Shown here: piece after piece, positions 1,412 through 22,773 of the stretch
Layout of the letters: each line of letters starts with the position of its first letter
Numbering within the stretch: position 1 is the stretch's first letter
Source of the DNA: Asterionellopsis glacialis
Lineage: Eukaryota > Bacillariophyta > Plagiogrammaphyceae > Rhaphoneidales > Asterionellopsidaceae
Assembly (NCBI GenBank): GCA_014885115.2
Contig: WKLE02000586.1
Span: forward strand, 2,537-33,188
Direction: 5' to 3'
Length of the DNA stretch: 30,652 nucleotides
Position numbers and translations under genes: made by a program
The notes under the pieces: generated by a model
Told to the model about the DNA's origin: nothing
The model's database searches: none
Seen by the model: the letters and a program-made list of their open reading frames with translations, nothing else

Positions 1412-4400
1412 CTAGCAATTGTAGTCACAGTCACTACCTTCGCTGACACTATCGCTGCCACTATCACTGCGGAACAAAACCTGGTCATCGTCGTCCTCAT
1501 TCGGTACATTCACCAGCAAAGTTCCACCCGGAGACAACTTTGCATTGAATTGCAGTCCGCCTTCTCCAACCCGTTCCTGCAGTGGTCGATAAGTAGATAC
1601 ATTTCCAACTTTAGGTTCCTTTGCATGCTTTTTCTCCTTTGTTGCCTTCGAGACACACCTCCTCATGTCTTGTAGGTACGTCTTATACCCAGCCCTCGGG
1701 CGAATGGGTTTCATTGCAATGGGTTCATCATACTCGCATACGACACGATTCGCCCCGCTAGAATCATCGATTATTGGACTTCCCACGTCAAATGTAATGT
1801 TGTCTGACATTGTTCCTGCCGTGTTCGATACACCTCGAAGAGGAGTTGAATTAAAGATGTCATCATCTGCGTCTGCTTCCAACAATGCAATACGTTCAGC
1901 CTCCATCTTTTCATCTTTGCTCTTTGAAGATTTCTTTTTACGAAGCATTGGTGTCTTTACAAGAGAGAACCATTTATCCCGGCACTCGGAAGCAGTTTTA
2001 CCTTCAACCAACTTTTCAACATCCAACCAGAATGTGGAGGAGGTAGGATCGACTTGCGCTTGTGCCATTTTCAGTTCATTCACTTGGGCACTAGTCCAAG
2101 GTGATAGCTCTCCTAATTCATCCTGAATGCTGTATCTCTTTTTAGCCTCTACTACCTTCGTTGTCGCGGTTCGGGAGTTAGAGGTAAAAGATTCTGGACA
2201 TCCAACGTTCACGTCCATCTGTGCATCAGTCTTGGAACCTTCAAGCTTTTCTTTGGAAACTCCTGTCTCGGACGAAGAACGGGAGCTTACATCTTTTCTG
2301 AGTGCTTTCATTTTCTTGCCACGTGACTTTCGAGGTTTGGCCCGTTTCTTCTTCTCTTTTGACCTGAAAGTTGCCTTCTTAGGCCTACTCCTTGTTGGTA
2401 ACTTCTTCGCTATTTTCTCTGTCGATCCTTGAATCATTTTGTTCGCTTCGTCGGGAGTGTCCTTACCATGCTCCGAACCTTCCCAGCTTATCATTAGTCG
2501 ATCGGTTTTGACACGACGTCTGCAGGACCTTCGCAACCCATTTTCTTCGTCAGCGATGGTTCTTGCTACCCAGAATGAAGGTGATACCACCTCGATATCT
2601 AATACTCGAGATCCTGGCCTATTTTGTTGAATAGGACTGGTAATTGCCACATCGACATCCAGTACTTGGGAACCCAGTCGATCATTTTTATCAGCACACA
2701 CGGGTACGGTATTGCTATTTACCAAGCTAATCGATCTACGCTTTATATCAAAGCTGTGCCTTTGACCATTATCTTGAGAATTCATATCCTGTATCCGATT
2801 ACTTGTCTCTAGTTCACAGCGTTTATTATCAACATTGCCGGTCAAAAACGGAGATGTCTCTCTTAGGTCATTGCTATCGACTGTTTTTTCATTCTCTGTG
2901 ACTTTTACTTCTCCACTCGACCTTGTGTAAGTTTCCACAACCGATCGATTTTGAGAAGTAGCAAATGTTTGGTCGACTTTTGAAGAAGTTTCCACATCAG
3001 AGTGACCATAGTTTCCCTCAGAACTACAAGATACCTTGGATACACCCCCCTTGGTCGATTCCTTTTGTATGCTAGTGTTAACGTTTACTTCAGACGACAA
3101 ATCTATGTTTTGCAAGTCAAATTCCTGACAATCGGATGAAGCCCCCAAACAGTTGGCATCTGTCATTAACGAGGCCAGAGAGTGACCTTCAGATGAAGCC
3201 CCCACACAGCCTGCATCTGTTATTGACGAAACCAGAGAGTGACCATCGTGTGAAGCGCCTAAACAGTCGGTATGTTTCATTGACGAGGTCAGAGAGGCTA
3301 GAGCTTCCTTAGTACTACTTCTCATATTTTCTGCCTGTGCTTTCATTTTTTCCGGTGTTTGCTTGAAGTCTATCCGTTTTGATGGTTTCTGTGGCGTTTC
3401 GGATGAAGAGGGCTCATTCAAAACGGCGAGATACTTTGAAGAGGTATCGTTCAAGTTCGCCTCCATTCTTCTGTTACCAGAAGTGGAGATTCTGGCAGTA
3501 TTATGTCGCATTTTCGAATCCCTTGACGGTTGAAATGAAACCCACTTTTTAGCCCAGCCTTCAATAGCACCCGATTCGGTAGTTGCTACAAATGAAGGAT
3601 TCTTTGCGATTTGAGGAAGTTCCGATATTAGGCGTTCTTTAGTTGTCACAGAATCTTTTCCTTTCGAGACTTCCACTCTTCTGCTCGACGAAGAGCGAGT
3701 TTGACGTGCATTGGCCAAGGTATTATCTTCTTTTCGCTTAGATCGCATTGAACGATTATTGCCTTTTCTATTCGAAATCTTCTTTTTCTCTTTTTTTGGT
3801 TTTGGTTCAGTCAGAAGTGACCCTAAAGAATCCATTTCTTTGAAGATACCGTTCGATATCTTTTCATTCTTGATTGTTTTCTTTGCAGGGTAGTTTGACG
3901 AAGAAGATTCATTTTGAGGAACTACCAACAAAGAATCACAATAAGTTTTTTGCAATGCTCCCTTTCTTCCGAGAATGCCTTTTCTATTGCGAGGATTCCC
4001 ACTAGACTGACATTTATCCCTTGTTGCATAGGCGGGAAGAGATCCCAAACAATCTACAACTTCAAGAGGAGTCGCACGATTTGCTACTGCTATGTTGTTA
4101 AGATTCATCAACACAGATTCTTGAACGTCATTTCCCCTCCCCAATGTTACGAGTTCATCTGGATTTTCTTCCTTTTCCGAAGTTGATGATACTAGCCCCC
4201 CAAGTACCCCTAAAGCTTCTGTTGCCTTAAGCGAAGTTGGTTTTGTCCGTTTTCGACCAGCTCTTGTGCGAACAAATGTATCAGCACCTTTCTCCTTAGG
4301 CTTTGTTGACTTTGCAAATCTTTGATTCCCAGGAATTTTGTTAGTTTGTTCAGATAGTACAAGTCGCTGCCGCAGTTTTCTTTTATCTGTTTGCCTTGAT

Positions 4401-4558
4401 GACTTTTCTCGCTGCCCATTTCGTTTTTTCTGATACCGACTATCACTTTCCTTGATGTTGGCAAGTGAATCAGTAACCTGTAACGGATCTCTATTTTCAC
4501 CACCCTCTATGCTCGGAAAAAGCACACGACGAAGTTTAGAAATAAATGCACTACTCAT
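1412..4558 (-). CDS. SANT-domain nuclear protein, candidate KNL2/M18BP1 centromere factor
   Basis: Single-exon 1048-aa protein, strongly basic and rich in Ser, Lys and Arg over most of its length, with many KKxKK/RKR clusters (nuclear). Residues about 816-871 form a Myb/SANT domain: it opens PWTSAQ, has FWLDV in the middle and ends ASECRDKWFSLV. Residues about 672-692 (RRSCRRRV followed by ISW) resemble the CENP-C motif (RRSxRxRV...YW). The order CENP-C motif then SANT, followed by an acidic DDDIF-STPL segment and a Ser/Asp/Glu-rich tail, fits non-mammalian vertebrate KNL2/M18BP1, which helps load centromeric histone CENP-A. I see no SANTA domain, normally present in that family. Residues about 417-480 carry tandem 19-aa repeats. 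The start is the first ATG, and the gene is divergent from the TTC27-like gene. SANT is certain; the KNL2 assignment is inference, and another Myb/SANT chromatin protein is the alternative. Confidence 0.8.
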   Translation of the reverse strand: MSSAFISKLRRVLFPSIEGGENRDPLQVTDSLANIKESDSRYQKKRNGQREKSSRQTDKRKLRQRLVLSEQTNKIPGNQRFAKSTKPKEKGADTFVRTRAGRKRTKPTSLKATEALGVLGGLVSSTSEKEENPDELVTLGRGNDVQESVLMNLNNIAVANRATPLEVVDCLGSLPAYATRDKCQSSGNPRNRKGILGRKGALQKTYCDSLLVVPQNESSSSNYPAKKTIKNEKISNGIFKEMDSLGSLLTEPKPKKEKKKISNRKGNNRSMRSKRKEDNTLANARQTRSSSSRRVEVSKGKDSVTTKERLISELPQIAKNPSFVATTESGAIEGWAKKWVSFQPSRDSKMRHNTARISTSGNRRMEANLNDTSSKYLAVLNEPSSSETPQKPSKRIDFKQTPEKMKAQAENMRSSTKEALASLTSSMKHTDCLGASHDGHSLVSSITDAGCVGASSEGHSLASLMTDANCLGASSDCQEFDLQNIDLSSEVNVNTSIQKESTKGGVSKVSCSSEGNYGHSDVETSSKVDQTFATSQNRSVVETYTRSSGEVKVTENEKTVDSNDLRETSPFLTGNVDNKRCELETSNRIQDMNSQDNGQRHSFDIKRRSISLVNSNTVPVCADKNDRLGSQVLDVDVAITSPIQQNRPGSRVLDIEVVSPSFWVARTIADEENGLRRSCRRRVKTDRLMISWEGSEHGKDTPDEANKMIQGSTEKIAKKLPTRSRPKKATFRSKEKKKRAKPRKSRGKKMKALRKDVSSRSSSETGVSKEKLEGSKTDAQMDVNVGCPESFTSNSRTATTKVVEAKKRYSIQDELGELSPWTSAQVNELKMAQAQVDPTSSTFWLDVEKLVEGKTASECRDKWFSLVKTPMLRKKKSSKSKDEKMEAERIALLEADADDDIFNSTPLRGVSNTAGTMSDNITFDVGSPIIDDSSGANRVVCEYDEPIAMKPIRPRAGYKTYLQDMRRCVSKATKEKKHAKEPKVGNVSTYRPLQERVGEGGLQFNAKLSPGGTLLVNVPNEDDDDQVLFRSDSGSDSVSEGSDCDYNC
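3128..3300 (-). repeat. 57-bp tandem repeat coding for 19-aa units
   Basis: About three imperfect in-frame copies inside the SANT-protein gene. The anchor TGAAGC recurs at 3137, 3194 and 3251, exactly 57 bp apart. The units read as D/G/N-C-L/V-GAS-S/H-x-GHSL-x-S-x-x-TDA. A length of 19 codons keeps the frame when copy number changes. Confidence 0.8.
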
Positions 4559-5136
4559 TGTATTGTTATCAATTGTTCCGCGTGTTTACTCTCTTTAAGA
4601 TAGAGTCCGAAATCAGGATATACGCGACCTTACGAAAATTGAAAAATATTTTGAAAATACAAATTATACTACCGCACTATTTACATATACTTCGAAACCT
4701 GTTACAGTCCCAACAATGAGATCACTAGTACGGAGTGCGTATTTGTGCCGTGAACGAGAGGCCAAAAAGAAAGAGAGCCACGAAATCCCGGGAAGGTTGT
4801 GGTCTCCCAGGAAAACCTCTGAAAATGTGACGGTTTGAATTTTGGGTTTTTGGTGAGGTATTCGTTAATGCATTCGTTAGTGCATTACTTAACGAGAACA
4901 CGTCATCATTACGCAAGAGTTTCCGTTGTGAATTCCGTCTGTACGACGTTTCGATGGGCCAAACTTCTTAGTCCAGAACCAAGTAAATTTTTTTCTGTCG
5001 CAGGTTTTCTCCTGAGACTTCCTCATCATGTTTTGCCCGTCTCCCTCCGTCGAACACACACAGCATCACAAATAACCACAACATAAGTTTTACTTGTTTC
5101 TTCTTTAGTTAAACCAAAATCTCACGTTAAAAAACC
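4559..5136. promoter_or_regulatory. Divergent promoter region between the SANT and TTC27-like genes
   Basis: 578 bp separate two start codons pointing outwards, so both promoters should lie here. There is a 12-bp direct repeat, TTCGTTAATGCA at 4861-4872 and TTCGTTAGTGCA at 4873-4884, followed by ACTTAACGAG, which partly inverts it. No clear TATA box is assigned. Short open frames here look accidental. Confidence 0.5.
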
Positions 5137-8119
5137 ATGCAGGGAGACGACAGCGATAGCGATAGCGATGTTGCATTCGCGGCGATGGATTTTTCTGGAG
5201 TGAATTTTGATGATGGCGCGACAGACGACGACTTCGGTCTGAACGAGATTGATAAGGCAGCGTTATCTCTTGAAGAACTTGTTTTTCTGTCAAGAGAAAA
5301 TCCGGGTGATGGAAAGGAGGATGAAAGTTCTGAAGATATCTCACCTGATATCGACCGGATTCGAACTCTCACTAAATTACTATCTTCCGGCAGGTACACA
5401 GATATCCTCAAGAGTGAATCTGCAACTGCTTTCTTTGGTGGGATGGAAGAGTTTACAGAAGTAACCGTTGTTCAGGAGATCAGAAAGAGAATGTTTTCCT
5501 ACTGTACGAATGCCACTTCTTGTGTAGAAGCAGAGATCCTGGGCGTGGCAGCTCTCAATATGTTCCTTCAACTCAACTATACCGGACCGTCCCTTGATCA
5601 TGGACTGAATCCTGCAGAAATTGTTGAGGACCCACTTTTGGGGATTAACCCGCATGATTGCTTTCGTGAGCATTTAATTGCATCTGTCAACGACACACAA
5701 GACATAAAACAGGAAGAAAGCGAAACCAACGAGGAGGAAAAGACTGAGAAACTGACGAAGTCAAAGCGCGACATGGCCTATCAGAATGCTGTTTTATCTG
5801 AACTTGCCGTGGATGGGGAGTGGCCTTGCCAAGTTTGTGAAGTACCATACTTTCTTCTGATAGCACGCGCTATACTATTTACACTATCAACACCAGATCG
5901 TGCGGATTGGACGAACTCTATTGGATCAGATGAATCACAAGCAACACCTGATAACTCTCAATCTATACCACCGGAGTTTTCAGCGGTGGCGAAACAGCTT
6001 CATGCATCACATCTGTGGAGTGCTCGGGCGGCTCTTGCCCATGAGCGCTTGCTTCAATCTCGTGGACCATCGGTTACGCTGTGGAATGAAGTTGAGGCAC
6101 TGTATAGTCACTGTCGTACTACATATTGCGATCCTGTAGCGGATGACTTGGAAAATAAAAGCCACAAGGAGAGAACTACTGCTGCATCAATCATGCTAGA
6201 ATGGGGACTTGCGGAACATCACTTTGACAGAGATGGCAAAGGAAAGAAGGCTTTTCTGAAAGCACAGGAACTGTCTGGATTGGAGGTCGAGGTTACGGGT
6301 GCCGTGGGAAAACGTACCAAATTTCAACAAGAAGCGACGGCACAGATGCTTGTGAAAGCTAAATCTGCGTTTAGAGAGACAGAACAAGGTCAGACGGAAA
6401 GCAAGGGTGAAAAGCAAACGGTGAAACCCGAAATGATTGAACACGACGAAGAAGAGATTCTCCTCGAAAAAATCAAGTTCGATGATGATGAAGAGAATAA
6501 AGTTGACGATCTGACCATTCTGGATCAGACCATTATCCTGTCCCTGTGTCTCGATGTGAAGAACAACAACCCAGCCGACGGACTCACAGCGGAGCAAATG
6601 GGCGCATATTTGGCTCGTGTCTTGCACCACCATGATGACTGGATGGTGTACTCAACCGCATTATTAGAGCGAGCTTGGCTTGAGTGCGAGAAAAGCCACG
6701 GACGGGAACGTGCTATCTTACAAATCCAAGCCCTTACCGATCAACACGCAAATCGTCTCACCGTAACACAGTCCACAATGCAAAGTGTAGAGGATTCTGC
6801 ACCGGCACAAGACCGTCTTGAGAACTTGCACACAATTGTGTATCCCCCTAGGTGGTCTATGTTACGTGATTTGGCCGAGCGGTACGCAAAGATTGGTGTC
6901 GTTACGTCTGCAGCAGAAATCTTTGAACAACTTGAAATGTGGGACGAAGTTGTTGAATGCTACCGCCACGCAGGAAAAGAGAGCAAGGCAGAGCAAGTTA
7001 TTCGAGAACGTCTTGCGGAGGCGGAGACGCCTCGTATGTGGGCTGCACTGGGAGATATTACAAAAGATCCTTCCTACTTCGAGAAAGCACTCAAAATATC
7101 CAAGGGGAGGTTTTCAGATGCCTACGTTGCACTTGGAAAATACAGCTTTGAAAAAGGCGAGCTTCAAAATTCATTTGACTATTTCAAAAAAGCACTCAAA
7201 GTAAGACCCTTGATGCCCCAGGTGTGGTTTAATTTAGGAACTGTTAGTATGCGACTCGGTGAATGGCAGATGGCATTAAGAGCTTTTACAGAAGTTGTGC
7301 AACAAGAACCTGAAACGGGTGATGCATGGGCAAATGTTGCCGCAGTGCATATGCATAACAAGCACCCCGCAGAAGCATACCCGGCTCTCCTCGAGGTAAG
7401 AATCTAGTTTGATGAACCACAAAATATTTCTTTCGTGCTGAATACTCATCCTTCTTATTCTCCCGCCACAGTCATTGAAATACAGCCGGAATAATTGGCG
7501 TGTTTGGATAAGTAAGCTTTATACATGCATTGATCTTGGAAAGTACGACGAAGCTATTCAGGCTTGTGGTGTTTTAATGGACCTTAGATCAAAGAAGAAT
7601 ATGGCTGAAAAGATCCCACCACTCGAGGAAAAATGTGTGAAGGCGATTGTTGGTGGAACACTGAAACAACGCGAAAATTGCAAAGATGATCCTGCTGCCC
7701 TCCAGTCTTCCACAAGATCACTTACTCGTGTACACGATCTGCTCGAAAAACTGAGTTCATCAACCACACCTGAGCCATGGATATGGGAAACACTTGCAGT
7801 CTTTAATGAACAGGTAGGAAATGATAGAGATGTCTTCGACAATCTAATGAAGGAATACAGAGCCCTTCAGACTGTCCCAAACTGGGAAAAGGATGATTTT
7901 CAGGTGCGCAAAGTCAGTCAAGTTGTATTTCAGATTGCTCGCTTTCACAAACAAGAAGGAAGCCGGCAAAGCCTTTCTAAATGTAAGCTCCTTGTGAGTG
8001 GTATCATCCAAAAGGTACGTAAAGTCTATCTGGACGACTCGAAAATCCCAGGGGACTTGGAAAAGCTAGAAGAACTTCTCCAAGAATTGGAAGGACTTTT
8101 GAAGGAATCATCATCTTAA
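5137..8119 (+). CDS. TTC27-like tetratricopeptide repeat protein
   Basis: Two exons, 5137-7395 and 7472-8119, with a 76-bp GT-AG intron at 7396-7471 in phase 0; the spliced product is 968 aa. Splicing joins PALLE to SLKYSRNNW, restoring a TPR helix pair that runs across the junction. The N-terminal 75 residues are acidic (DSDSDSD near the start). A family-specific middle region contains SHLWSARAALAHERLL. TPR units follow from about residue 571 to 805, including FEQLEMWDEVVECYRHAG and ALKVRPLMPQVWFNLG. This layout matches TTC27 (about 840 aa in human; yeast relative Emw1), a soluble TPR scaffold implicated in cell-wall integrity in yeast. The extra length here lies mainly in low-complexity inserts such as residues 190-215 and 405-455. 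The start is the first ATG after an AC-rich leader. Family assignment is confident from the pattern; function in algae is unknown. Confidence 0.88.
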
Positions 8120-8252: not shown

Positions 8253-9976
8253 CTACTTCAGCTGAGAAGTGTCTATTATGTTGGCAAATCGAATTTCAGC
8301 AATCCACGTTGACAAAATTTCCTGTATCTTCTGAAATCCTTGTTTTACATCATCAGTATCTTTGTCCGACGGACCTTGTCCGGACAAATCTGAATGATGT
8401 GCACCATTTTCAAAATTGAGTACCACAAGACTATCCGATAAGTTTGATAGTATGCCCCCCACAGACCACCCATCATTCAAACCATTGGTAAACAAGATTT
8501 TGGATGCATTAGCTCCATTCACTAAATCATTAATATGCCAATCCTCATCAAGATGTTTAGGATTCGGTGTCACCCCAAATCTTTTTCTACAATGATCCGT
8601 AAGCCATTGTAACGTCCAATTTCTTGGTGGGAACATGGATACTTCGGAAAAACCAATAGCTTCAATTAGAAATGAACACGTCTGGAAGTCCCAACTCTCA
8701 CCGCTCGTACCCGTGCCGACTCCAGACCAGTCTTTGAGGGCAATAACAAAAAAACCTAAGGTTGAGAGGCAGACAGAGACGAATAGATTGAAAACAACAT
8801 CCCATTCTACTTACCTCCAGCTGAAATGGTAGCCTTTGGACCAGTAGGTAGCTGAGTACTCATATTGAAGCAACGGTCGGTTTCTTTCATGAAATGATCC
8901 GAAAAGAAATGTTTGACTTTGTCAGTAGAATGGCTGAGAGTGTTCTTCAAGTAGCCATCTTCTGATGATACAAAATTTTTACATGATTGATGTAATCGCG
9001 TTTGATTGTTCGGCGGATAGTTACCCATATTATCATTTGCAAAAGTGTATCCAACGACCATAAATACTTCCTCCTGAAAGGTCTTTCCATCGCGAATGTA
9101 ATTTGGTAACGTTCCATCACAAATTCCTAAAGACTGTGCAGCAATATTCAAATCATTGGCATTGGAAATTTTTGAAAATTTCGATTGTAATCTTAGTAAT
9201 GCCTTCCGAACAGCCTTAGCACAGCCAGGTAACGACTTCTCCGCAACTTTAGTAATATGTTCATAATATGCTCCAACAGAAACTTGTTGCGAATAAAATT
9301 TCATAGGTGCAGAAGCAGCATATGCCATATCAATCACGTCTGGGAATATAACTCGTGCCATTGCGCTCAGAAAACCTGGATAAGACCCACCCACTGTGAT
9401 GACTGGACAATACTTATTCGACTGTCGATCATTTGAACACCCTAATACTTTTTGTGTATGTCGCAACAATCGAACTGCATCATGCAAAGCTTGCTCGAAT
9501 GTTAGGAGCTTGAGTCGTGGATCACTAGCTTTCTTTGCTGTGTCTCCTAAAAATATCGAAGAAAAATCTACTTTAGTATAAACTTGATCCACACTAACTG
9601 GCATAGATTCACCATAGAAGCGATGTTCGGGCTCTAATACGTATGCACCAAAAGATTGGGCTAAATGATCTGTAACAAAAGGATAAAGTAAACCAGCTTG
9701 AGGTTCTATATTCCCTTCTCCACCGAGTATCATAAATATAGGTGACCCTGGTCCTTCAAAGTGTTCGTCATAAACATAATATCGTTGTACCCATTCCTGT
9801 TTATTATTATCATCAAAATGATCTACAAGTTGATGAGAATAGTAACGAGGAGGTGCTGGTGTTCCAGCACGACATACTGATAAACCATTATTATTATTTC
9901 TTCTCTTTGATGACGATGATGCCAAAAGTACAGCGGAGAACAATTTGAATTTATTCGAAAGGATCGCCATGATCAT
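8253..9976 (-). CDS. Serine carboxypeptidase, peptidase family S28 (PRCP/DPP7/PRSS16-like)
   Basis: Two exons on the minus strand, 9976-8815 and 8731-8253, with an 83-bp intron (8732-8814; donor GTAAGT, acceptor CAAAG) in phase 1; spliced product 546 aa. Splicing gives SAG-D-WSG, then WDFQTC and a conserved PPRNW segment, as in S28 enzymes. The triad is visible: Ser198 in GGSYPG, Asp474 in NGLNDGWS, and His499 or His500 in GAHHSDL. The EPEHRFYGES motif near residue 115 is also typical. The N-terminus (KFKLFSAVLLASSSS) looks like a signal peptide, so the enzyme is probably secreted or vacuolar and removes residues next to proline. GGSYPG rather than GGSYGG is closer to the PRSS16-like branch. 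Length is normal for the family. It converges on the TTC27-like gene, with 133 bp between the stops. Confidence 0.92.
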
Positions 9977-10181
9977 CCATATTATATCGCAGAAGAATCT
10001 ACTTGCGTGTCGTGTTCTTTTTGATGGTTCTGTTGGCTATACCTGTACCGGTAGGAAAAGGTTTGGCGTTTTCCACATTTGTGGCATTGTCCGATGTTCA
10101 GGTATCTTTCAGAAGTCAGAAGATCTGACATCTGACAAAATGATGAAACCCAGGGGAGAGAGGTTCGAGATCCAGCCAGTT

Positions 10182-11140: not shown

Positions 11141-13018
11141 TGGTACAGTGAGGGCTTTCTTTCGTTTTAAATATTATATGTAATATTATCGACGCCGCAT
11201 TTTTAAAAAAGCACCTTGAAGTTCATAAAGAACAATCGCTTTCTTTGCATTTTGTATGCAAATTACAAGTGTCTGACCAGATTCGCTTCTGAATAGTAAA
11301 TGAGAAATTATGAGGATTAAATCCGGCAAGTGAAAAAAAGGGAATGTAAAAATATACAGGTAAATCTATATTATCAAGCCAATCCGGTATCCAGTAAAAT
11401 TACACATCTATGTATGAGAATAAGAATTAAGTCGAAGCATGGAACTTTTAGGACACCTACCTACATAATGGACAAGATGGTCTTGTTCAAGTTGACAGAC
11501 AGTCGGTAGTACTGTACAGGGCTACCTGGTTTACCTTACCTGGTACAGGTATGTGCAATCTAAAGCAGTCACGTGCATCGACTTCTTACTTTTATACTGT
11601 ATTAATATTTGAGTGCTTCGAGTGTATTATTTTTACAACGGAATATACCTGTAAGTTGAGCTGTATTTGCGAAAGGCCTATTGGAGGAAACCAGAGGAAC
11701 CTTCCATTCAATAATAATATGGCAATAATTGATAACCAAGAATAAAAAATCCTTTCTTTTCTGTTCCTAGCCGGTCGATAGTAGTATTATAGACTTATAT
11801 AAAATACAGTACCATGTACCTTGTACTCGTAAGTTGAAGAAGGGATACCAGGTCGTAACCAGGTACAAGGCATCATGTCATGTGGTACTTGAGGACCGCG
11901 CACTTTGAAGTAATACGGTAACATCAATACAATCAACACAGTCCTAACTGATACCTGGTACTCTTGTTTCTAGGTCCTTGACCAGGACTACCTCTACAGG
12001 TAATGTACAGTATCTGTAAAGAAAGTGGCTTCCAACTAAAATGTATACCATATACTGTACATCATGATCTCTACCTACTCTTCGTGTATTTGTACTAATA
12101 GGTGGTACGGCGGCGTTACCCAGGTACGGGCACTACATTGTATACTGGTACGAAGTATGTATACCAGGTACAAATACAGACCTTACTCATGTACCTGTAC
12201 TGTACCTTTATCACATTTACGTATCAGATGTACGTAGAATGTCGAACCTAGGGCTATACCTGTATAGATATTAGTTTTATAAAAATTGTACCAGTTAGTA
12301 ATAGATAGGCTTTACAGGTACCTGGTACCAGGACGTCATTCAAACTATTAGTAGAAACCCTCACCTCTGCTAGTTATCATAGCATTTCACATCTGGCTGC
12401 CGATAGGAACTAAAATACATGGTACAAGGAACGGTATACTGGTACCAGTTAGTTTGGATAGATCTTGTACCTGTATCCTACCAGCGGGTACCTGTACATT
12501 ACTAGGACCTACGAATTCTATACTGTTTATGTGACGTGATTAATTGCATGCATGCCTGCATGCCTACCTGGTACAGTAGTTACTTCAGGTCCCTAGATAC
12601 TGTTGTAGTAGATACTGGTTGGTCTATAGAACATAGTCGTACCAGGTACTATGACAGTACCCGTTGAATTACCCGTACAGGTACCAGGTACTTGTTGTTT
12701 TGGTTTTCCGAATGGTACCAGGTACCATACAGGACATACCCAGGTACGGCACAGGACATACGGCACTGGTCATGATGCATTCTCATTGACTCTAAAGACC
12801 TCTAGTTTCTGTAGAAATGCTGTCTTCGTGCCTGTCAACATCATATAATAAATATTGATTACTCCGTTCCAACTTGTTCTCAGTGAGGCAACGGGAGCTA
12901 ATAAAAAAATACATCATATTGTCTACCTTGTCGATCTAGATGGGCAGGAACTACCTATAGAGGACTTACAACCAAGAGAGAGGGGACAAAGAGTATCGAA
13001 AACGACGTCCAATATAAA

Positions 13019-15440
13019 ATGCCATTGGTATCAACATCAGCATCAGCATCTACTTCTTCTTCTTCTTCGCAATCCAACTCGGTGGAGGAGGCAGCACTGA
13101 CCAAATCATCATCGGGTAATCCGACGAAATTTCTCCCTCTTCGCATTTTTTCTCGATCAAAAAAGAGGATGACAGCGACAAAACCCCCTTCTACCCCTCC
13201 GGCACCACAAATGGCAACAATGTCGGAAACATTTGGATTTATCTTACAATGCAATTCTGGTACAAGAGCATTATTCATTATGGGGTGCTTAGGAAGTGTG
13301 GGGAGTGGACTTGTCTTTCCCATGTTAGCATCCTTATTCCCTGTAGCCTTTTCAACTATTACAGGGTCAGCTGCTGGATTGGAAGAACTTCGTTCTGTAT
13401 CACACAAATTTCTTGTAATAGGTGTATATGCACTGTTTATGGCATCCATCCAAGCTGGATGTATTGAAACTGCAGCTGCACGTGCAACTCGATCATTCCG
13501 ATTACAATGGTTCCAAGCTCTCTTACGACAGGATATTGCCTTTTTTGATGTACATGCTGTATCAGAAATCTCAACCATGTTGGGACCACAATCGAACATA
13601 TACCGACGTGGTATCGGTCGCAAATTTGGGGATGGTATTCATTATGCTACACAATTTCTTGGTGGCATATCCTTTGCCTTTTATTCATCGTGGAGAGTAG
13701 CATCTGTAGTTATTTCGGCATTGCCTTTCGTGTCTGTTGCATTGTATTTGTCTATAATCTACAACCAAAACGTTACAGCTAACTCTGCCAGGGCCTATTC
13801 CAAGGCTGCGAGTGTTGCGTTATCTACCATATCTGCCATTCGAACAGTCTTGTCATTAAATGCAATACCTGAAATGATCCGTCAATATTCGGATGCAACA
13901 TTAGAGGCATATACAACCACTGTACGGATACTCTGGAAACAGGGACTTGCTAATGGGTTTATGCAGGGTGCATTCAAACTTTTAAATCTTATCCTTACTT
14001 TATATGGGGCATCCTTGGTCTATAAGGAAGTAAGAGTGACAGGATGCAATCCCTCTGGTGGTTCATTTGGTAGTTTTTCTTGTGAAGAAAGCGGACCTGC
14101 CGTATTTGGGGCGATGCTGGGGATTGCCTTTGCTGCAACAGGTGTATCACAATTGACTAATTCCTACGAAGCCTTTACGGCAGCACGAATAGCCGCCTAC
14201 CGCGCCATACAATGTATTCACCGAGTACCTGGTGCACCGCAAGAAACCCTATTCCATGACGCCGAAATTCTAGACCTTACGTCGGTGGAAGACAAAAATG
14301 ATGGCAATGATATTGAAGCACCAAAGTACGGCAAGATCAGAGCCGTGGTACCTAGTTACCAAATAGACTCTTCTTCGAATGATGGCTTAAAAGTCAAATC
14401 AATCAAGGGTGACATTGCTTTTGAAAATGTTACATTTTCATATCCTACTCGACCTGGTAATGTCATTCTAAATGACTTCAATCTTACTGTAGAAGCGGGT
14501 AAGACAGTAGCACTTGTAGGTGCAAGTGGCGGCGGGAAGAGTACTATCGCTGCTCTGATAGAACGGTTTTACGATCCAACATTTGGTAGTGTGCATTTGG
14601 ATGGGATAGATCTGCGTGAATTGAATGTCAATCAATTGCGTCAATCCATTGGCTATGTAGGTCAAGAACCAATTCTATTTGCAACTACTATTGCTGAAAA
14701 CATTCGTAATGGTCACCCCACCGCCTCCCTGCAGGATATTTACGAAGCTGCTAGGTTAGCAAATGCGCATCAATTCATCCAGTCTTTTCCAGATGGGTAC
14801 GAGACAAAGGTAGGGGATAACGGAGCACAGTTATCAGGAGGTCAGAAGCAAAGAATAGCCATTGCAAGGGTATTGGTATCAAGGCCAAGTATTTTCTTAT
14901 TTGACGAGGCTACATCAGCACTTGATGCTGAATCTGAAGTTGCCGTACAAGAAGCTGTGGACAATGTTGTTGCAGGCTGTAAACGAACAACAATAGTGAT
15001 TGCTCACCGACTATCGACTATCCGAAACGCCGACTCCATTGCTGTAGTTTCCGGTGGAAGAGTCGTAGAACAAGGTAGTCATACGGAATTGATGGATTCT
15101 AATATTGGAGAATATCGCAGGCTTGTAGAAAAACAGTCATCAAATATAAAACGACATTCATCTTTCAGAAGAAGTACAACGGGAGATCTCGACAGTTCAA
15201 GTTCACATGTGTCTCGTAGCGGTGCTGCACTTGGTGACGTTGATCAGGTGCGATTTGATAAAGTTAGCTTTTCCTATCCTAGTCGTCCTGGAAGGGTCGT
15301 TCTAAGCGATTTCAAACTCAAGATCTACGAGGGTGAAACAGTAGCTTTGGTTGGACCTAGTGGCGGTGGAAAGGTACGAAGAAAACAGTTTGCTTCAATC
15401 GGTCACTACTATGAAGTTTATTTTCTGACTGCATTGTTTT

Positions 15441-15484
<44 letters not shown>

Positions 15485-17440
15485 NNNNNNNNNNNNNNNN
15501 NNNNNNNNNNNNNNNNNNCCCCCCCCCGCAGTCAACAGTCGTGAGTTTGATTGAGCGTTTTTATGATGTGGATGAGGGTACTGTAGAGTTCAGAGGTTGT
15601 GACATCAAGAATCTTAATCCAAAGTGGTATCGCGATCAAATTGGGTATGTGGGACAGGAACCCACACTTTTTGATACAACCATTGGAAAAAATATTGCTT
15701 ATGGATTTCAAGGTGCTACACAAGATGATATCGAACAGGCAGCTAAACAAGCAAACGCACATGATTTCATCATGTCCTTTCCAGATGGGTATGATACTCT
15801 TGTTGGAGACCGTGGTGCATTGCTTTCTGGAGGTCAAAAACAAAGGGTAGCTATTGCTAGAGCTCTCGTGAAGGGACCAAAGATTCTTCTTCTTGACGAG
15901 GCAACGTAAGTGCAACACATGCTTATCTTTCAAGTGTGTTGTATTTTGCTGTAGGTTCCTTTGATTTTGATTATGCATTGTTTTTCATCTCGTGTGTTTT
16001 GCTTCTTTTGTGCATTATAGATCCGCACTTGATTCGGAATCTGAGTCCATCGTTCAGGAAGCACTCGACCAACTTATGGCATCAAGGAACCACACAACCA
16101 TTGTGATCGCTCACCGTCTTTCGACCATATGTGATGTAGATCGCATTGTCTACATTGATCAGGGGAAAGTCATTGAGTGCGGCTCCCATGAATCATTAAT
16201 GGATATGCCAAAAGGGCGATATCGGCGTCTAGTGGAAACACAGAGTGGCACACAAACAATGTTATCGTCAACGAATCTTAGTGGTGCGACCCTCGAGGGC
16301 AGCGAGGAAAAAGAACCACAAGAAAATGATTGCGATGAAGAGTTGGACACAAACGCATTTTCTGTATCAAGAGCTAGAAAGTTGGCTACTCCTGATGTTG
16401 GTTATCTTCTCTTTGGAGCTTGTGGAGCCATGGTTGCGGGATCAATATTTCCAGCTTGGGGTGTCCTGTTTTCACAAACTATTGAAATGCTGTTCACAGT
16501 TGTTGTTGAATGCGACAACAATTTTCTTAACAGAACAGATTTCGATTCATGCCCTGATTACTGGGAATCAGTGGCAGATGAAATGCAGCAAAGGTCAATA
16601 GAATTGGGGTGTTATTGGATAATTCTTGCTGTTGGTTTCATCGTCGGAACTTTAGCATACATGGTCGGTTTTGGCTATGCAAGCGAAAGATTAAACAAGC
16701 GAGTACGAGATCAAGTATTTGCCGCTCTAATCCGACAAGAGGTGGCTTATTTCGATGTGCACCCCACCGGAAAAATTTCATCCCAACTGCAGGAAGATAC
16801 TTTATGCATCCACACATTTTCTGGCGAACCTGTGAGGGTTATCGTTTTTGCTTGCTCTTCAGTTTTTACTGGAATAGTGATTGCGTTTAGCAGCATGTGG
16901 CAATTCGCTTTGTTGTCGATGCTTACTATACCATTTATGGCATTTGCATCAACCAGAACAGTAAAAGCAAAGATTGGACAGGATGAAGGTGATACGAATG
17001 CGCCAGATCCATCCGACAGCCCTGGAGCCATCGTGATCGAAACGCTGTCGAATATTCGTACAGTAGCAGCGCTTACGATGGAAAAAGCACAGTTCGAAAA
17101 ATATAAAGATGCACTACGATCATCTGAAGAGAGTTACTACCTTACCGCTATCAAGAACGGCATTACGAACGGCATGTCAGTATTTATCCAACAATGGGTA
17201 AATGCCCTGCATATATGGTGGGGTGGTTATCTCTTATCCAAACATGAAGGTCATTATAGCTTCAATGACCTTTTAGTATCGATGTTTGCAATGATGTTTT
17301 CCCTGTTTGGGTTGGGTAATGCTTTTCAAAATCTATCCGATCGAAGCGAAACGGAGAAAAGTGCTGGCAGAATCCTTTATTTACTAGATAGAAAGAGTCA
17401 GATCGACCCTCTTAGTGAAGGCGGAAAAAAGCTCGATTAA
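13019..17440 (+). CDS. ABCB/MDR-type ABC exporter with TMD-NBD-NBD-TMD order
   Basis: Three exons, 13019-15373, 15532-15905 and 16021-17440, give 1382 aa. The first junction joins GGGK to ST of a Walker A motif; the second joins DEA-T to SALD. TMD1 spans about residues 80-400. NBD1 has Walker [10 protein letters not shown] (501-509), signature LSGGQ (605-609), Walker B IFLFDE (625-630) and the H-loop [12 protein letters not shown]2 follows after only about 45 residues, with Walker A ending at Lys785-Ser-Thr, LSGGQ (883-887), Walker B ILLLDE (903-908) and another H-loop, so both ATP sites look intact. TMD2 (about 1034-1360) comes last, and the protein stops at [10 protein letters not shown], exactly where an NBD normally begins. 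The usual order is TMD-NBD-TMD-NBD. Type B exporters pump lipids, drugs or metabolites out of membranes; the substrate here is unknown. An assembly gap lies in intron 1. Confidence 0.88.
15445..15484 (+). repeat. (TC)20 microsatellite
   Basis: Forty bases of uninterrupted TC dinucleotide ending at the N run; the real repeat may be longer. A shorter TC run lies near 19485. Confidence 0.95.
15485..15518. other. Assembly gap (34 N)
   Basis: Unresolved bases inside intron 1 of the ABC exporter gene. Confidence 0.99.
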
Positions 17441-19210: not shown

Positions 19211-20016
19211 TGTAATATTACGTGACTCTGGTCGGTTCGACCAGGAAATGTTCCCAAAGCACAATGAATTTTGTTGGCGGTGTATCAGGTAGATACGTAC
19301 CTGGTACCCCTGTTTTGAAGTTCCTCTCTTTATTACCTGTACACATATTTTTAATACTCGTACCGGTAGGCGCGCACCCCTCATTTTTACTTATTTTGAT
19401 TTGCACATCAGAACTATTTACAGACAGACGGTAGGACCTCTCCAGAGGACCTGTAGAGTATCTACTCTCTCTGTACCTGGTAGAACTCTCTCTCTCTCTC
19501 TAGAGTACCTGGTACTGTACTCGTACCTCGTACTTTGGAAAATGACGGCTGCGATCATACTAGGACCCACAGAAGCTTTGACGCGATAACATCCATGATT
19601 TTCTGCATGGGCGGGTCTACAAGTGGAATCAGGGATAGAGTTAATCTGGATCATTGTCTCTTTTATCTTTTGATTATTATATAATAAATATTTCCAAATT
19701 TTTTATTGGCGATCGGTCCAAGATAATCAAATCCAGAATGTTTCATGGTTTGGTGGAAAATATATATGAAGGTACATTGATAAGACACATCTGGTGCATT
19801 TTCTTTTCTCTCGTCTCGCCGAAGAAAATACCTATATTAATTACGTTCTCGTACCCATACAGGTACGACATACTTGTAGGTCCTACGATCTCGTGACTAC
19901 AAGTAGACCAAACAATGGATTCTTTGTGTTTGTTGTTCTTAAGAAGCGACCATTGATCATCTCGTTTATGTTACAAAGCGTTGTTGAGTGGTAACTGAAT
20001 TTACTGATGAGGAAAG
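19211..20016. promoter_or_regulatory. Divergent promoter region with palindromic repeats
   Basis: 806 bp between two outward-facing genes. It holds three TACCWGGTA copies (19298, 19474, 19506), an imperfect CCTCT-CC-AGAGG hairpin near 19437-19448, a short TC run near 19485 and a hairpin CTGGTC-GGTTC-GACCAG at 19228-19244. No gene is recognised inside. Confidence 0.5.
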
Positions 20017-22773
20017 ATGTCTATGCGAAACCGAGGATTTAGAAGTGCAGAGCAGAAAAAATGCTCTGACGAAAGCCATTTTGATGCTAAGACACCCTCG
20101 AATGGTGACAACGACAAATCAAGAGAAAGGAGAGAAAACACTGTGAGACGAATACTCGGCAACAAAATTAGTCAGGGATGCCTGTTGATCATTTTGGCAT
20201 ATAATGTTATATCTGGTGGAATAATTGCAGAGTTCAAAACAGCTGATGAAGCAAGATCAAAACTGACTTCGTTCGTAGCGACAAATATGAATGATAGTAG
20301 TAGAAGTAGTATTCTTGAGCATATCAAAACAACAAGGGCATCAATAGCTAGTCTAGCAAATTTCCCAGTCAGCAAAGATAAAGAAACACGACGACCTGGG
20401 CGTTTTCCAAAATACGGCACAAAAGAATTTGCTCAACAATGTAATTGGACTGTTCCTGCTCCAGACAGTCCAGACCCAGAATGTGCTTACCTAGCTCGTC
20501 CTCCACCCAAAAGTCACGAGGGAATATCTGACTGGGCAAGTGGTGTTACTACGTCTTATCTAATGGCAAGACAACTGGGCTGCAAGATGTATGTTGACTA
20601 CGGTAAAGATGTTGATATTCATAGTGTTGTTACCATTTTTCCTGATATCCACCCCCTACACAATTGGACGACCCCTGCTCATTTAGCCAATAAATTCACT
20701 GGAAATAGTGCACGTTCATTGCAAGGCTGGAATAATACCAAAATGGGACGCCGAGCTCGAAATGTTGATGCACCCAAATACCGTTATTCGATGGGTGGCT
20801 TAACTAGACAATATATATATGAAGATGACTTTCCAGACCTGAAAAAGAATCTTCCAGGTTTTAATCTTGAAACTGGAATGGCATGTGTGTTAGGGAACAT
20901 ATTCAATCTATCCCCTACTGCAGCAAACTATGAACCCCAACTCTTCACTGAAATTCTACCAGCATTGCATGATGAAAATGCTCTTGTGATCGCTTTGAAT
21001 GTTCGTACCAATAGAGCAGATTTAATGGCTGATAAGGAAAAACTCAATGCAACCGTACCAAAAGAGCGAAAAGTAAGGTCACAAAAGTCATTCACGAGTT
21101 TTGTGAATAAATCATTTTGCATAGAAGAGAGATATCTCTCTGGTATTGAAGAACCTGATTTGGATATTTCTCAAGTTGTGTGGATAATATTAAGTGACGG
21201 TCAAGAAGTTAAGCGTTCATTTCAGGAACGGTACGATGGGAAGGATGCCAACGCAAGACTTCCAGAAGAAAGTCGAAAATGGAAATCCAAGGTCATCCCA
21301 AGAAAAATATTATATACAAAGGCACGAGGTATACACACGAGGCCAGAACGGAGTCCTAGCACTCAGGATTTCGCCGAAGCATTTATTGATTGGTATCTGA
21401 TTGGAGAGTCTGACGCAGTGGTTGTTGAGTCAGTAAGCTCGTTTGGTCCAACAGCTGCCATGCGAACGCATCGTCCTTTGTACCGTACACACAAAGGAAA
21501 TAACTATGTATGTGATGAGCCTATTCCAGCAATACGCAAAAGGATACCAGAAGTAGAGGTAACTTCAAAAGCATCCAATAACAAAAACAAAAATGCTGTT
21601 AAAACAGTGCTACGAAATAATAAAAGGCTACAAAAAGAAGAAGCACTGCCGGTATTGAATAGCCATAGATTTCCTTCATACGGTACGCCTAGTTTCAGGG
21701 ACGAATGCAGTTGGACAGAACTTGAAATGTATAACAATGATCCTAAATGCATCATCTATTTCGCTCCGAAGACTTCATCAGAAGGTCTTTCATGGTTTAT
21801 GAGTGAACTTGCGAGTCAGTACATCATGGCAAAGCAGGCTGGCTGTCAACTTTACTTTTCTTATGGATTACATCAAAGGTCAAAAATCGACATGAGTCAA
21901 GTAATACTTCCACACACAGATTCTGTGTCACCCAACAACTGGACAGTACCCACAGGATTCGAATGTCTGGAGGAAGAACACTGCTATATCATTCCTATCG
22001 ATACAAACCATTTAAGGAGCAAACCTTATATACCGGTACCAGCCTTCAGTGAAGTGCCGGGGAGAAAGCCTCTAAAAAGTGTACCACGGTACCGCTATGC
22101 TTACTTTATATTGGGTGACAAATTTTTGTACAATGACATGTTCTTGGATTTAAAGGATGTACTTCCTGGGTTCAAAGTTGAAACTGGAATGGCTTGTGCA
22201 CTTGCAAGCTTGTTCCGATTGTCTCCCAAGGTATCTCAGTTTGAACCTCGACTCTTTAGCAGCATCTTTCCTAAACTGCACGACCCTGACTCACTTGTCA
22301 TATCCATTTATATCCGCACCGGAAAAGCAGATATGGCAGCAGAGAAAAACGGAATTACCCTCAAGGGTCAAAGTACTTTGGATTGTGCTATGTCTGTTGA
22401 AAAATTGATTTCTATCAGCCAGAAGCGCATTGTATGGATGGTAGTATCTGATTCTCCAGCGCTAAAGCAGGAGATCGTGAAATCCTACAATAATACAAGT
22501 GTAGATGTTGGAAACACGCATTCAAACATAACGCGAGAGATTCTAGTGACCGGGGCAGAAGGTTTGCATACTAAAGGGGCAAGTCCATCTATGCAAAGCT
22601 TTGGAGAAGCTTTCATAGATTGGTATCTCATCGGAGAGTCTAACGTTGTTGTATCATCACAAGATTCGACCTTTGGCACAACAGCTGCACTGCGCTCTAA
22701 CCTGCCGGTCTACGAAACTAGGAAATGCAAACAAAGGACTTTGATTCATCAAAGAATCGAGAAAAAGCATTAG
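20017..22773 (+). CDS. Tandem-domain fucosyltransferase-like type II membrane protein
   Basis: Single exon, 918 aa. A basic, hydrophilic N-terminus is followed by one hydrophobic segment (GCLLIILAYNVISGGIIA, about residues 54-71), the layout of a Golgi type II glycosyltransferase. Two homologous halves follow, about 128-505 and 546-918. Each starts RFP-x-YGT, has EG(I/L)S, GC-x-(L/M)-Y, NWT, PGF-x-(L/V)-ETGMAC and LSP, then three motifs recalling the fucosyltransferase superfamily (NodZ/FUT8/O-FucT). These are an Arg motif (VRTNRAD with Arg330; IRTGKAD with Arg767), VVW/IVW followed by (L/V)SD, and FIDWYLIGES (456-465 and 866-875) leading into TFG/SFG-x-TAA. Several NxT/NxS sites fit a lumenal protein. 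The sugar and acceptor are not predictable. Both halves keep the Arg motif, so both could be active. It could instead be an unrelated GT-B family. Confidence 0.75.
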   Translation: MSMRNRGFRSAEQKKCSDESHFDAKTPSNGDNDKSRERRENTVRRILGNKISQGCLLIILAYNVISGGIIAEFKTADEARSKLTSFVATNMNDSSRSSILEHIKTTRASIASLANFPVSKDKETRRPGRFPKYGTKEFAQQCNWTVPAPDSPDPECAYLARPPPKSHEGISDWASGVTTSYLMARQLGCKMYVDYGKDVDIHSVVTIFPDIHPLHNWTTPAHLANKFTGNSARSLQGWNNTKMGRRARNVDAPKYRYSMGGLTRQYIYEDDFPDLKKNLPGFNLETGMACVLGNIFNLSPTAANYEPQLFTEILPALHDENALVIALNVRTNRADLMADKEKLNATVPKERKVRSQKSFTSFVNKSFCIEERYLSGIEEPDLDISQVVWIILSDGQEVKRSFQERYDGKDANARLPEESRKWKSKVIPRKILYTKARGIHTRPERSPSTQDFAEAFIDWYLIGESDAVVVESVSSFGPTAAMRTHRPLYRTHKGNNYVCDEPIPAIRKRIPEVEVTSKASNNKNKNAVKTVLRNNKRLQKEEALPVLNSHRFPSYGTPSFRDECSWTELEMYNNDPKCIIYFAPKTSSEGLSWFMSELASQYIMAKQAGCQLYFSYGLHQRSKIDMSQVILPHTDSVSPNNWTVPTGFECLEEEHCYIIPIDTNHLRSKPYIPVPAFSEVPGRKPLKSVPRYRYAYFILGDKFLYNDMFLDLKDVLPGFKVETGMACALASLFRLSPKVSQFEPRLFSSIFPKLHDPDSLVISIYIRTGKADMAAEKNGITLKGQSTLDCAMSVEKLISISQKRIVWMVVSDSPALKQEIVKSYNNTSVDVGNTHSNITREILVTGAEGLHTKGASPSMQSFGEAFIDWYLIGESNVVVSSQDSTFGTTAALRSNLPVYETRKCKQRTLIHQRIEKKH

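What the first reader, a model, noticed from the sequence alone, without database searches (positions are those of the whole stretch)
13019..17440. ABC exporter with permuted domain order TMD-NBD-NBD-TMD
The contiguous plus-strand sequence shows a complete NBD1 followed within about 45 residues by a second NBD, and TMD2 comes last and ends at the TMD-NBD boundary ([10 protein letters not shown] then stop). Type B exporters are normally TMD-NBD-TMD-NBD. All four domains are present and both ATP sites keep Walker A, LSGGQ, Walker B Glu and H-loop. The C-terminal NBD therefore seems to have moved in front of TMD2 rather than been lost. Both flanking linkers are ordinary, so the pump could still fold.
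Basis: partly seen in the sequence, partly recalled or inferred. Interest (0 to 1): 0.75.

Follow-up and report, generated by a model that had tools for sequence, protein, structure and literature searches.

The report
Diatom ABC pump with reordered domains
An algal membrane pump of the P-glycoprotein type carries its two ATP-burning engines back to back in the middle of the chain, instead of one after each membrane half, and many diatoms share this order, so it looks like a real, overlooked third way to build a full ABC pump.

Summary
The gene at 13019-17440 (+) has three exons and encodes a 1382-residue protein ordered TMD1-NBD1-NBD2-TMD2. Both ATP sites keep their core motifs, and the protein stops in the peptide that normally leads from a TMD into an NBD. 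The 34-N gap lies inside intron 1 and does not create the order. A second gene of this order lies on gap-free DNA of another contig. Of 182 homologues from three searches, 171 score as T-N-N-T, 3 have that order with one TMD hit split, 3 are fragments that do not contradict it, and 5 are doubled canonical proteins of birds and plants. Every T-N-N-T protein whose listed name shows an organism is a diatom. In a tree, TMD1 joins the N-half and TMD2 (moderate support) the C-half TMDs of canonical ABCB pumps, so the ancestor was probably canonical. NBD1 and NBD2 look like a pair of their own, so duplication of NBD1 with loss of the old C-terminal NBD fits at least as well as 'NBD2 moved'. AlphaFold models of two relatives place NBD2 and TMD2 about where P-glycoprotein has them. 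Ten paper searches showed no description. Function, and range outside diatoms, are untested.

The parts
13019..15373 (+). exon 1: N-terminal extension, TMD1, NBD1, linker, first 48 residues of NBD2 (to Walker A GGGK)
13229..14278 (+). TMD1 (residues 71-420); Pfam ABC_membrane at residues 86-336
14399..15136 (+). NBD1 (residues 461-706), all core ATP-site motifs present
15137..15229 (+). NBD1-NBD2 linker (31 residues), the junction without a canonical counterpart
15230..16243 (+). NBD2 (residues 738-984), split by two introns; all core ATP-site motifs present
15374..15531 (+). intron 1 (GT..AG) inside Walker A of NBD2; holds (CT)n 15446-15484 and a 34-N gap 15485-15518
15532..15905 (+). exon 2: NBD2 middle (STVVS... 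to LLLDEA)
15906..16020 (+). intron 2 (GT..AG)
16021..17440 (+). exon 3: end of NBD2, NBD2-TMD2 linker, TMD2, stop
16382..17437 (+). TMD2 (residues 1031-1382), branches with C-half TMDs of canonical ABCB
17402..17437 (+). C-terminal [12 protein letters not shown]: the TMD-to-NBD connecting peptide, ending at the stop where an NBD would begin
   Evidence: a loose motif pattern of mine for it is found in 149 of 172 T-N-N-T proteins

Best explanation
This is a single-chain ABCB-type (P-glycoprotein-like, type IV) exporter whose order is TMD1-NBD1-NBD2-TMD2. Shown: the order, its conservation in the diatoms sampled, and complete motifs at both ATP sites. Supported by a tree: descent of TMD1 and TMD2 from the N and C halves of a canonical full ABCB. 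Inferred from models of relatives: the four domains assemble as in P-glycoprotein, with NBD2 under TMD2, so only the wiring differs. NBD2 is tied to NBD1 by about 40 residues and to the elbow of TMD2 by about 53, while the last TM helix of TMD2 ends free, without an NBD on its end. Inferred from the family: it works by ordinary alternating access (two ATP between NBD1 and NBD2 drive outward opening) and exports hydrophobic or xenobiotic substrates. The likely origin (about 0.6 on its own; the stated confidence is for architecture and mechanism) is tandem duplication of NBD1 with loss of the old C-terminal NBD, early in diatoms or before them.
For: Spliced gene and domains. The 60 best relatives shown each align in one HSP, most over about 95% of the protein. 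Of 182 homologues, 171 are T-N-N-T, 3 same order with a split TMD hit, 3 fragments, 5 doubled canonical proteins. Second T-N-N-T gene on gap-free DNA of contig C1285. Complete MMETSP transcript ORFs, e.g. P0009, P0092, P0151. ATP motifs by my patterns: NBD1 148-155 of 156, NBD2 151-155 of 156. TMD tree: TMD1 with canonical N-half TMDs 98/92, TMD2 with C-half TMDs 89/82. C-terminus equals the canonical pre-NBD peptide. Models: P0142, pLDDT 85.8, pTM 0.79, TMD1-NBD1-NBD2 fits ABCB1 7zk5 over 746 residues at 3.2 A. P0060, pLDDT 83.7, pTM 0.70, TMD1-NBD1-TMD2 fits 7zk4 over 723 at 4.2 A and TMD1-NBD1-NBD2 fits 7zk5 over 636 at 4.1 A.
Against: No experiment: transport, ATPase and location are unknown. 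Each homologue list is only the best 120 of about 7,500-8,000 scored, so canonical diatom ABCBs or non-diatom T-N-N-T may exist unseen. Both modelled proteins lack part of TMD1, neither is the window protein, and AlphaFold may be drawn to the known P-gp fold. Whole-chain sequential fits are poor (Foldseek, 50 rows: query TM-scores 0.35-0.59, rmsd about 10-23 A), as expected for a permuted chain; for P0142, the TMD2-containing fits listed are to inward-facing-type structures at about 5-9 A. The TMD2 branch (89/82) is below the strict support mark. NBD origin is not settled: p-AU 0.078, 0.117, 0.263 for relocation-type trees.
Confidence: 0.78

Rival explanations
1. Assembly artefact: the gap in intron 1 joins pieces of two different ABC genes, or a segment is missing.
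For: A 34-N gap lies next to a CT microsatellite inside the NBD2 coding region.
Against: NBD1 to the start of NBD2, and the rest of NBD2 to TMD2 and stop, are each contiguous outside the gap. Homologues share the whole order across the joint. A second gene on gap-free DNA has the same order.
Confidence: 0.02
2. Two adjacent genes, a TMD-NBD half transporter followed by an NBD-TMD half transporter, wrongly read as one.
For: Half transporters of both orders are known in eukaryotes (PMC4649718, passages).
Against: The NBD1-NBD2 junction is within exon 1. Complete transcript ORFs of other diatoms carry all four domains.
Confidence: 0.02
3. Relocation: the original C-terminal NBD was moved in front of TMD2 and later homogenised with NBD1. 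(Shares the architecture and mechanism of the best explanation; differs in origin only.)
For: TMD2 groups with canonical C-half TMDs and ends in the old connecting peptide. N- and C-NBDs of the bird protein also group together, so NBDs may homogenise.
Against: NBD1 and NBD2 group together at 97/97. NBD2 with canonical C-NBDs: p-AU 0.078 and, with a mixture model and other rows, 0.021.
Confidence: 0.3
4. The chain is not self-contained: the free end of TMD2 and the tethered NBD pair make it work as an interlocked dimer or as a regulator.
For: The last TM helix carries no NBD, so NBD2 could in principle serve another chain (inference).
Against: Single-chain models reach a P-gp-like assembly; linker lengths vary little.
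Confidence: 0.08

Closest known systems
Full-length ABCB exporters (P-glycoprotein ABCB1, BSEP ABCB11, plant ABCB1/ABCB19)
   Same: Same TMD and NBD families. In PDB the window's NBD1 (with the start of NBD2) scores best against ABCB19, plant ABCB1 and P-gp, and the whole relative P0001 against ABCB4 and ABCB1. TMD1 and TMD2 branch with their N and C halves; models superpose on ABCB1.
   Different: Order is T-N-N-T, not T-N-T-N; no NBD follows TMD2; the two NBDs are directly joined.
Full ABCG/PDR transporters (NBD-TMD-NBD-TMD)
   Same: An NBD precedes the last TMD, which ends the protein.
   Different: TMDs match ABC_membrane PF00664; that ABCG TMDs belong to another Pfam family is recalled. 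The first half is TMD-NBD.
ABCC/MRP transporters of the same genome (contigs C702, C528, C1490)
   Same: ABC exporters with two PF00664 TMD matches each.
   Different: Of the models in NCBIfam they match MRP TIGR00957 best, below its cut-off as partial sequences. C702 and C528 keep canonical order by the coordinates; NBDs of all three are only about 27-35% identical to those of the window.
ABCE/ABCF proteins (NBD-NBD)
   Same: Two consecutive NBDs in one chain.
   Different: They have no TMDs (PMC4649718 and PMC3378599 passages).

Membership tests
ABCB full exporter (P-gp type) | Two PF00664 TMDs and two PF00005 NBDs in one chain | tested here: met
   spliced model
ABCB full exporter (P-gp type) | NBDs closest to ABCB among solved proteins | tested here: met
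   (window NBD1 and the start of NBD2): best rows are plant ABCB19/ABCB1, P-gp, ABCB1, ABCB4; (whole relative P0001): ABCB4, ABCB1. The window's NBD2 was not run alone.
ABCB full exporter (P-gp type) | Domain order TMD-NBD-TMD-NBD | tested here: not met
ABCB full exporter (P-gp type) | TMD1/TMD2 descend from N-half/C-half ABCB TMDs | tested here: met
   98/92 and, with moderate support, 89/82
ABCB full exporter (P-gp type) | Both ATP sites have complete core motifs | tested here: met
ABCB full exporter (P-gp type) | Overall P-gp assembly of four domains | tested here: met
   predicted models of two N-terminally incomplete relatives only
ABCB full exporter (P-gp type) | ATP-driven export | not testable with these tools
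   needs protein work
ABCG/PDR reverse full transporter | Order NBD-TMD-NBD-TMD | tested here: not met
ABCG/PDR reverse full transporter | ABC2-type TMD (feature recalled) | tested here: not met
   TMDs match PF00664
ABCC/MRP | Best match to the MRP model TIGR00957 | tested here: not met
   exon 1, P0001 and P0110 match TIGR00958 (TAP2 type, below its cut-off) best; three own-genome loci match MRP best

The most novel reading that the evidence does not exclude
Diatoms use a third full-transporter architecture, TMD-NBD-NBD-TMD, in place of canonical P-glycoprotein: ancient, expanded and functional. It would show that the covalent link from the last TM helix to NBD2, usually seen as central to coupling, is dispensable, and that a native NBD1-NBD2 tether can power an exporter.
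Probability: 0.55. Interest if true: 0.8.

Novelty: new variant of a known kind. Interest (0 to 1): 0.72.

Why it matters
A survey of eukaryotic ABC proteins gives only two full orders, TMD-NBD-TMD-NBD and NBD-TMD-NBD-TMD (PMC4649718, abstract and passages); a 2026 study uses five classes without this one (PMC13257379, passages). A third order kept across the sampled diatoms, and carried in databases under names such as 'Bile salt export pump', 'Leptomycin B resistance protein' or 'hypothetical protein', is a natural experiment on coupling: it separates the TM12-NBD2 covalent link from the coupling contacts. It also warns that annotation by similarity can hide domain order, and it bears on efflux in an ecologically major group of algae.

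Tried and rejected
Assembly gap as cause of the order: rejected. A third NBD downstream in the window: not found by tblastn. C-terminal tails: 33 of 172 T-N-N-T proteins have 40 or more residues after TMD2; the 22 tails of 80 or more residues printed (out of 156 proteins) are mostly Lys/Ser/Glu- or His-rich, and by eye show no NBD. They were not run against a family library.

Canonical P-gp in this genome: PF00664 gave 22 matches from 21 of 21 candidates. Three contigs with two TMD matches matched MRP best; C824 looks like a half transporter; C326, C1276, C226, C101, C158 and C171 show one TMD each and were not worked out, nor was C832, which shows two. PF00005 scored only 19 of 103 candidates. 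So absence of a canonical P-gp is likely, not proven.

NBD origin: the first script failed. One search gives NBD1 and NBD2 as sisters. N2+canonical C p-AU 0.078, N2+plant C 0.263, N2+animal C 0.117, N1+canonical N 0.043. One search (mixture model, 14 family proteins, 5 canonical proteins, 2 half transporters) gave 0.021 and 0.00074, but the long outgroup branch fell among NBD2 rows and one NBD1 row (P0168) fell beside the canonical NBDs, so I do not read its root.

This does not exclude one.

Fold searches: Foldseek on the P0142 model gave whole-chain fits of query TM-score 0.35-0.59; several rows have rmsd of 13-26 A and are not used. A Foldseek 'pdb' list was collected only for P0142.

Literature. 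Searches found no paper. Of the others I saw only the listed papers (at most 20 per call) with abstract starts, and none shown describes this order; one search asked about P-gp half-molecules. Passages only: PMC3237598, PMC4649718, PMC13257379, PMC3378599. Preprints and most subscription papers are not in the library.

Full report
What was checked. The gene at 13019-17440 (+) reads as three exons with GT..AG introns: 13019-15373, 15532-15905, 16021-17440. The spliced protein has 1382 residues. Pfam assigns ABC_membrane and ABC_tran to exon 1, ABC_tran to exon 2 and ABC_membrane to exon 3. On my domain borders NBD1 is 461-706, NBD2 738-984 and TMD2 1031-1382. NBD1 and NBD2 are 60.6% identical over 241 residues; TMD1 and TMD2 are 25.9% over 185. 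Walker A, Q-loop, LSGGQ, Walker B with Glu, and His switch are present in both NBDs. A tblastn of the four domains finds no other ABC domain in the window.

Not an artefact. The only gap, 34 Ns at 15485-15518, lies inside intron 1 next to a CT repeat. NBD1 plus the start of NBD2, and the rest of NBD2 plus TMD2 plus stop, are each on contiguous sequence. The same genome (40.3 Mb, 1503 contigs) holds a second gene with the same order on contig C1285, on DNA without Ns. The window protein and three relatives match it piece by piece in the order TMD1, NBD1, NBD2, TMD2.

A diatom family. Three protein searches (each listing the best 120 of 7,544-7,971 proteins) gave 182 distinct proteins. With the window protein that is 183: 172 T-N-N-T (window included), 3 with the same order but one TMD hit split (P0098, P0142, P0173), 3 fragments that do not contradict it (P0121, whose two NBD hits look like one split NBD2; P0162; P0163), and 5 doubled canonical proteins from birds and plants (P0081, P0102, P0119, P0166, P0172). 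The 60 rows shown each align to the window protein in a single HSP, most over about 95%. Every T-N-N-T protein whose listed name shows an organism is a diatom: Leptocylindrus, Rhizosolenia, Chaetoceros, Thalassiosira, Skeletonema, Attheya, Nitzschia, Cylindrotheca, Fragilariopsis, Seminavis, Entomoneis, Epithemia and others (some names are cut in the listing and completed by me; reading CCRYP as Cyclotella and Psemu1 as Pseudo-nitzschia is recalled). Several are MMETSP transcript ORFs marked complete (e.g. P0009, P0092, P0151), so the four domains lie on one mRNA in those species. That the window's organism is a diatom is inferred from these relatives.

Anatomy of the permutation. Across 172 T-N-N-T proteins the NBD1-NBD2 linker has a median of 40 residues (10-90%: 33-53), the NBD2-TMD2 linker 53 (48-63), and 130 of 172 end within 12 residues of the TMD2 match. 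The window protein ends [12 protein letters not shown]. Canonical ABCB proteins have a matching peptide just before their NBDs, for example IDSYSEEGEKPKIFGGNISF in P0081. The chain thus stops where an NBD would start.

Descent. In a TMD tree (18 family proteins, 3 doubled canonical proteins, 2 half transporters) TMD1 joins canonical N-half TMDs (98/92) and TMD2 joins canonical C-half TMDs (89/82, below the strict mark). The ancestor was therefore most likely a canonical full ABCB, not a new fusion of two half transporters. In an NBD tree (78 rows) NBD1 and NBD2 of the family group together (97/97). Placing NBD2 with canonical C-terminal NBDs gives p-AU 0.078 and, with a mixture model and other sampling, 0.021; placing it with plant or animal C-NBDs alone gives 0.263 and 0.117. 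I read this as leaning to duplication of NBD1 with loss of the old NBD2, without settling it.

Mechanism. Two complete ATP sites and a P-gp-like assembly point to alternating-access export with two ATP between NBD1 and NBD2 (inference from ABCB knowledge). The wiring differs: TMD2's last helix is not joined to NBD2, so coupling on that side must run through the intracellular-loop contacts alone, while NBD2 is held by two linkers. Substrates are unknown; export of drugs or xenobiotics rests on family likeness only.

Known or new. PMC4649718 (abstract and passages) gives the full orders of eukaryotic ABC transporters as TMD-NBD-TMD-NBD and NBD-TMD-NBD-TMD; PMC13257379 (passages) uses five classes, none T-N-N-T. 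Ten searches of the open library showed no description of the order (listings only). Subscription papers and preprints are not covered. Because the canonical order was tested and not met, I file it as a new variant of the ABCB exporter and not as a canonical member.

Limits. The lists are top-120 cuts, so neither a diatom-only range nor absence of canonical ABCB in diatoms is shown. In this genome three loci with two TMDs match MRP models best and C824 looks like a half transporter; several other ABC loci were not resolved.

Noticed in passing
12000-12999: Intergenic DNA rich in GGTAC/GTACC words: 16 of the window's 52 GGTAC and 7 of its 13 GGTACC lie in this kilobase.
   Followed up: partly
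20011-22773 (+): 920-residue ORF without a Pfam match made of two related halves: internal local alignment score 557 against at most 49 in 50 shuffles.
   Followed up: partly
L036 (contig C1285) 507-4970: Second T-N-N-T gene of the genome; its pieces are closer to the Leptocylindrus protein P0110 than to the window gene.
   Followed up: yes
family proteins, C-terminus: A subset of members carries long tails after TMD2, mostly Lys/Ser- or His-rich (22 of 156 with 80 or more residues); function unknown.
   Followed up: no
1412-4585 (-): 1057-residue ORF without a Pfam match; by eye a SANT/Myb-like stretch in its C-terminal third.
   Followed up: no
8253-10036 (-): Serine carboxypeptidase S28 gene in two frames, probably with an intron near 8807.
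   Followed up: no
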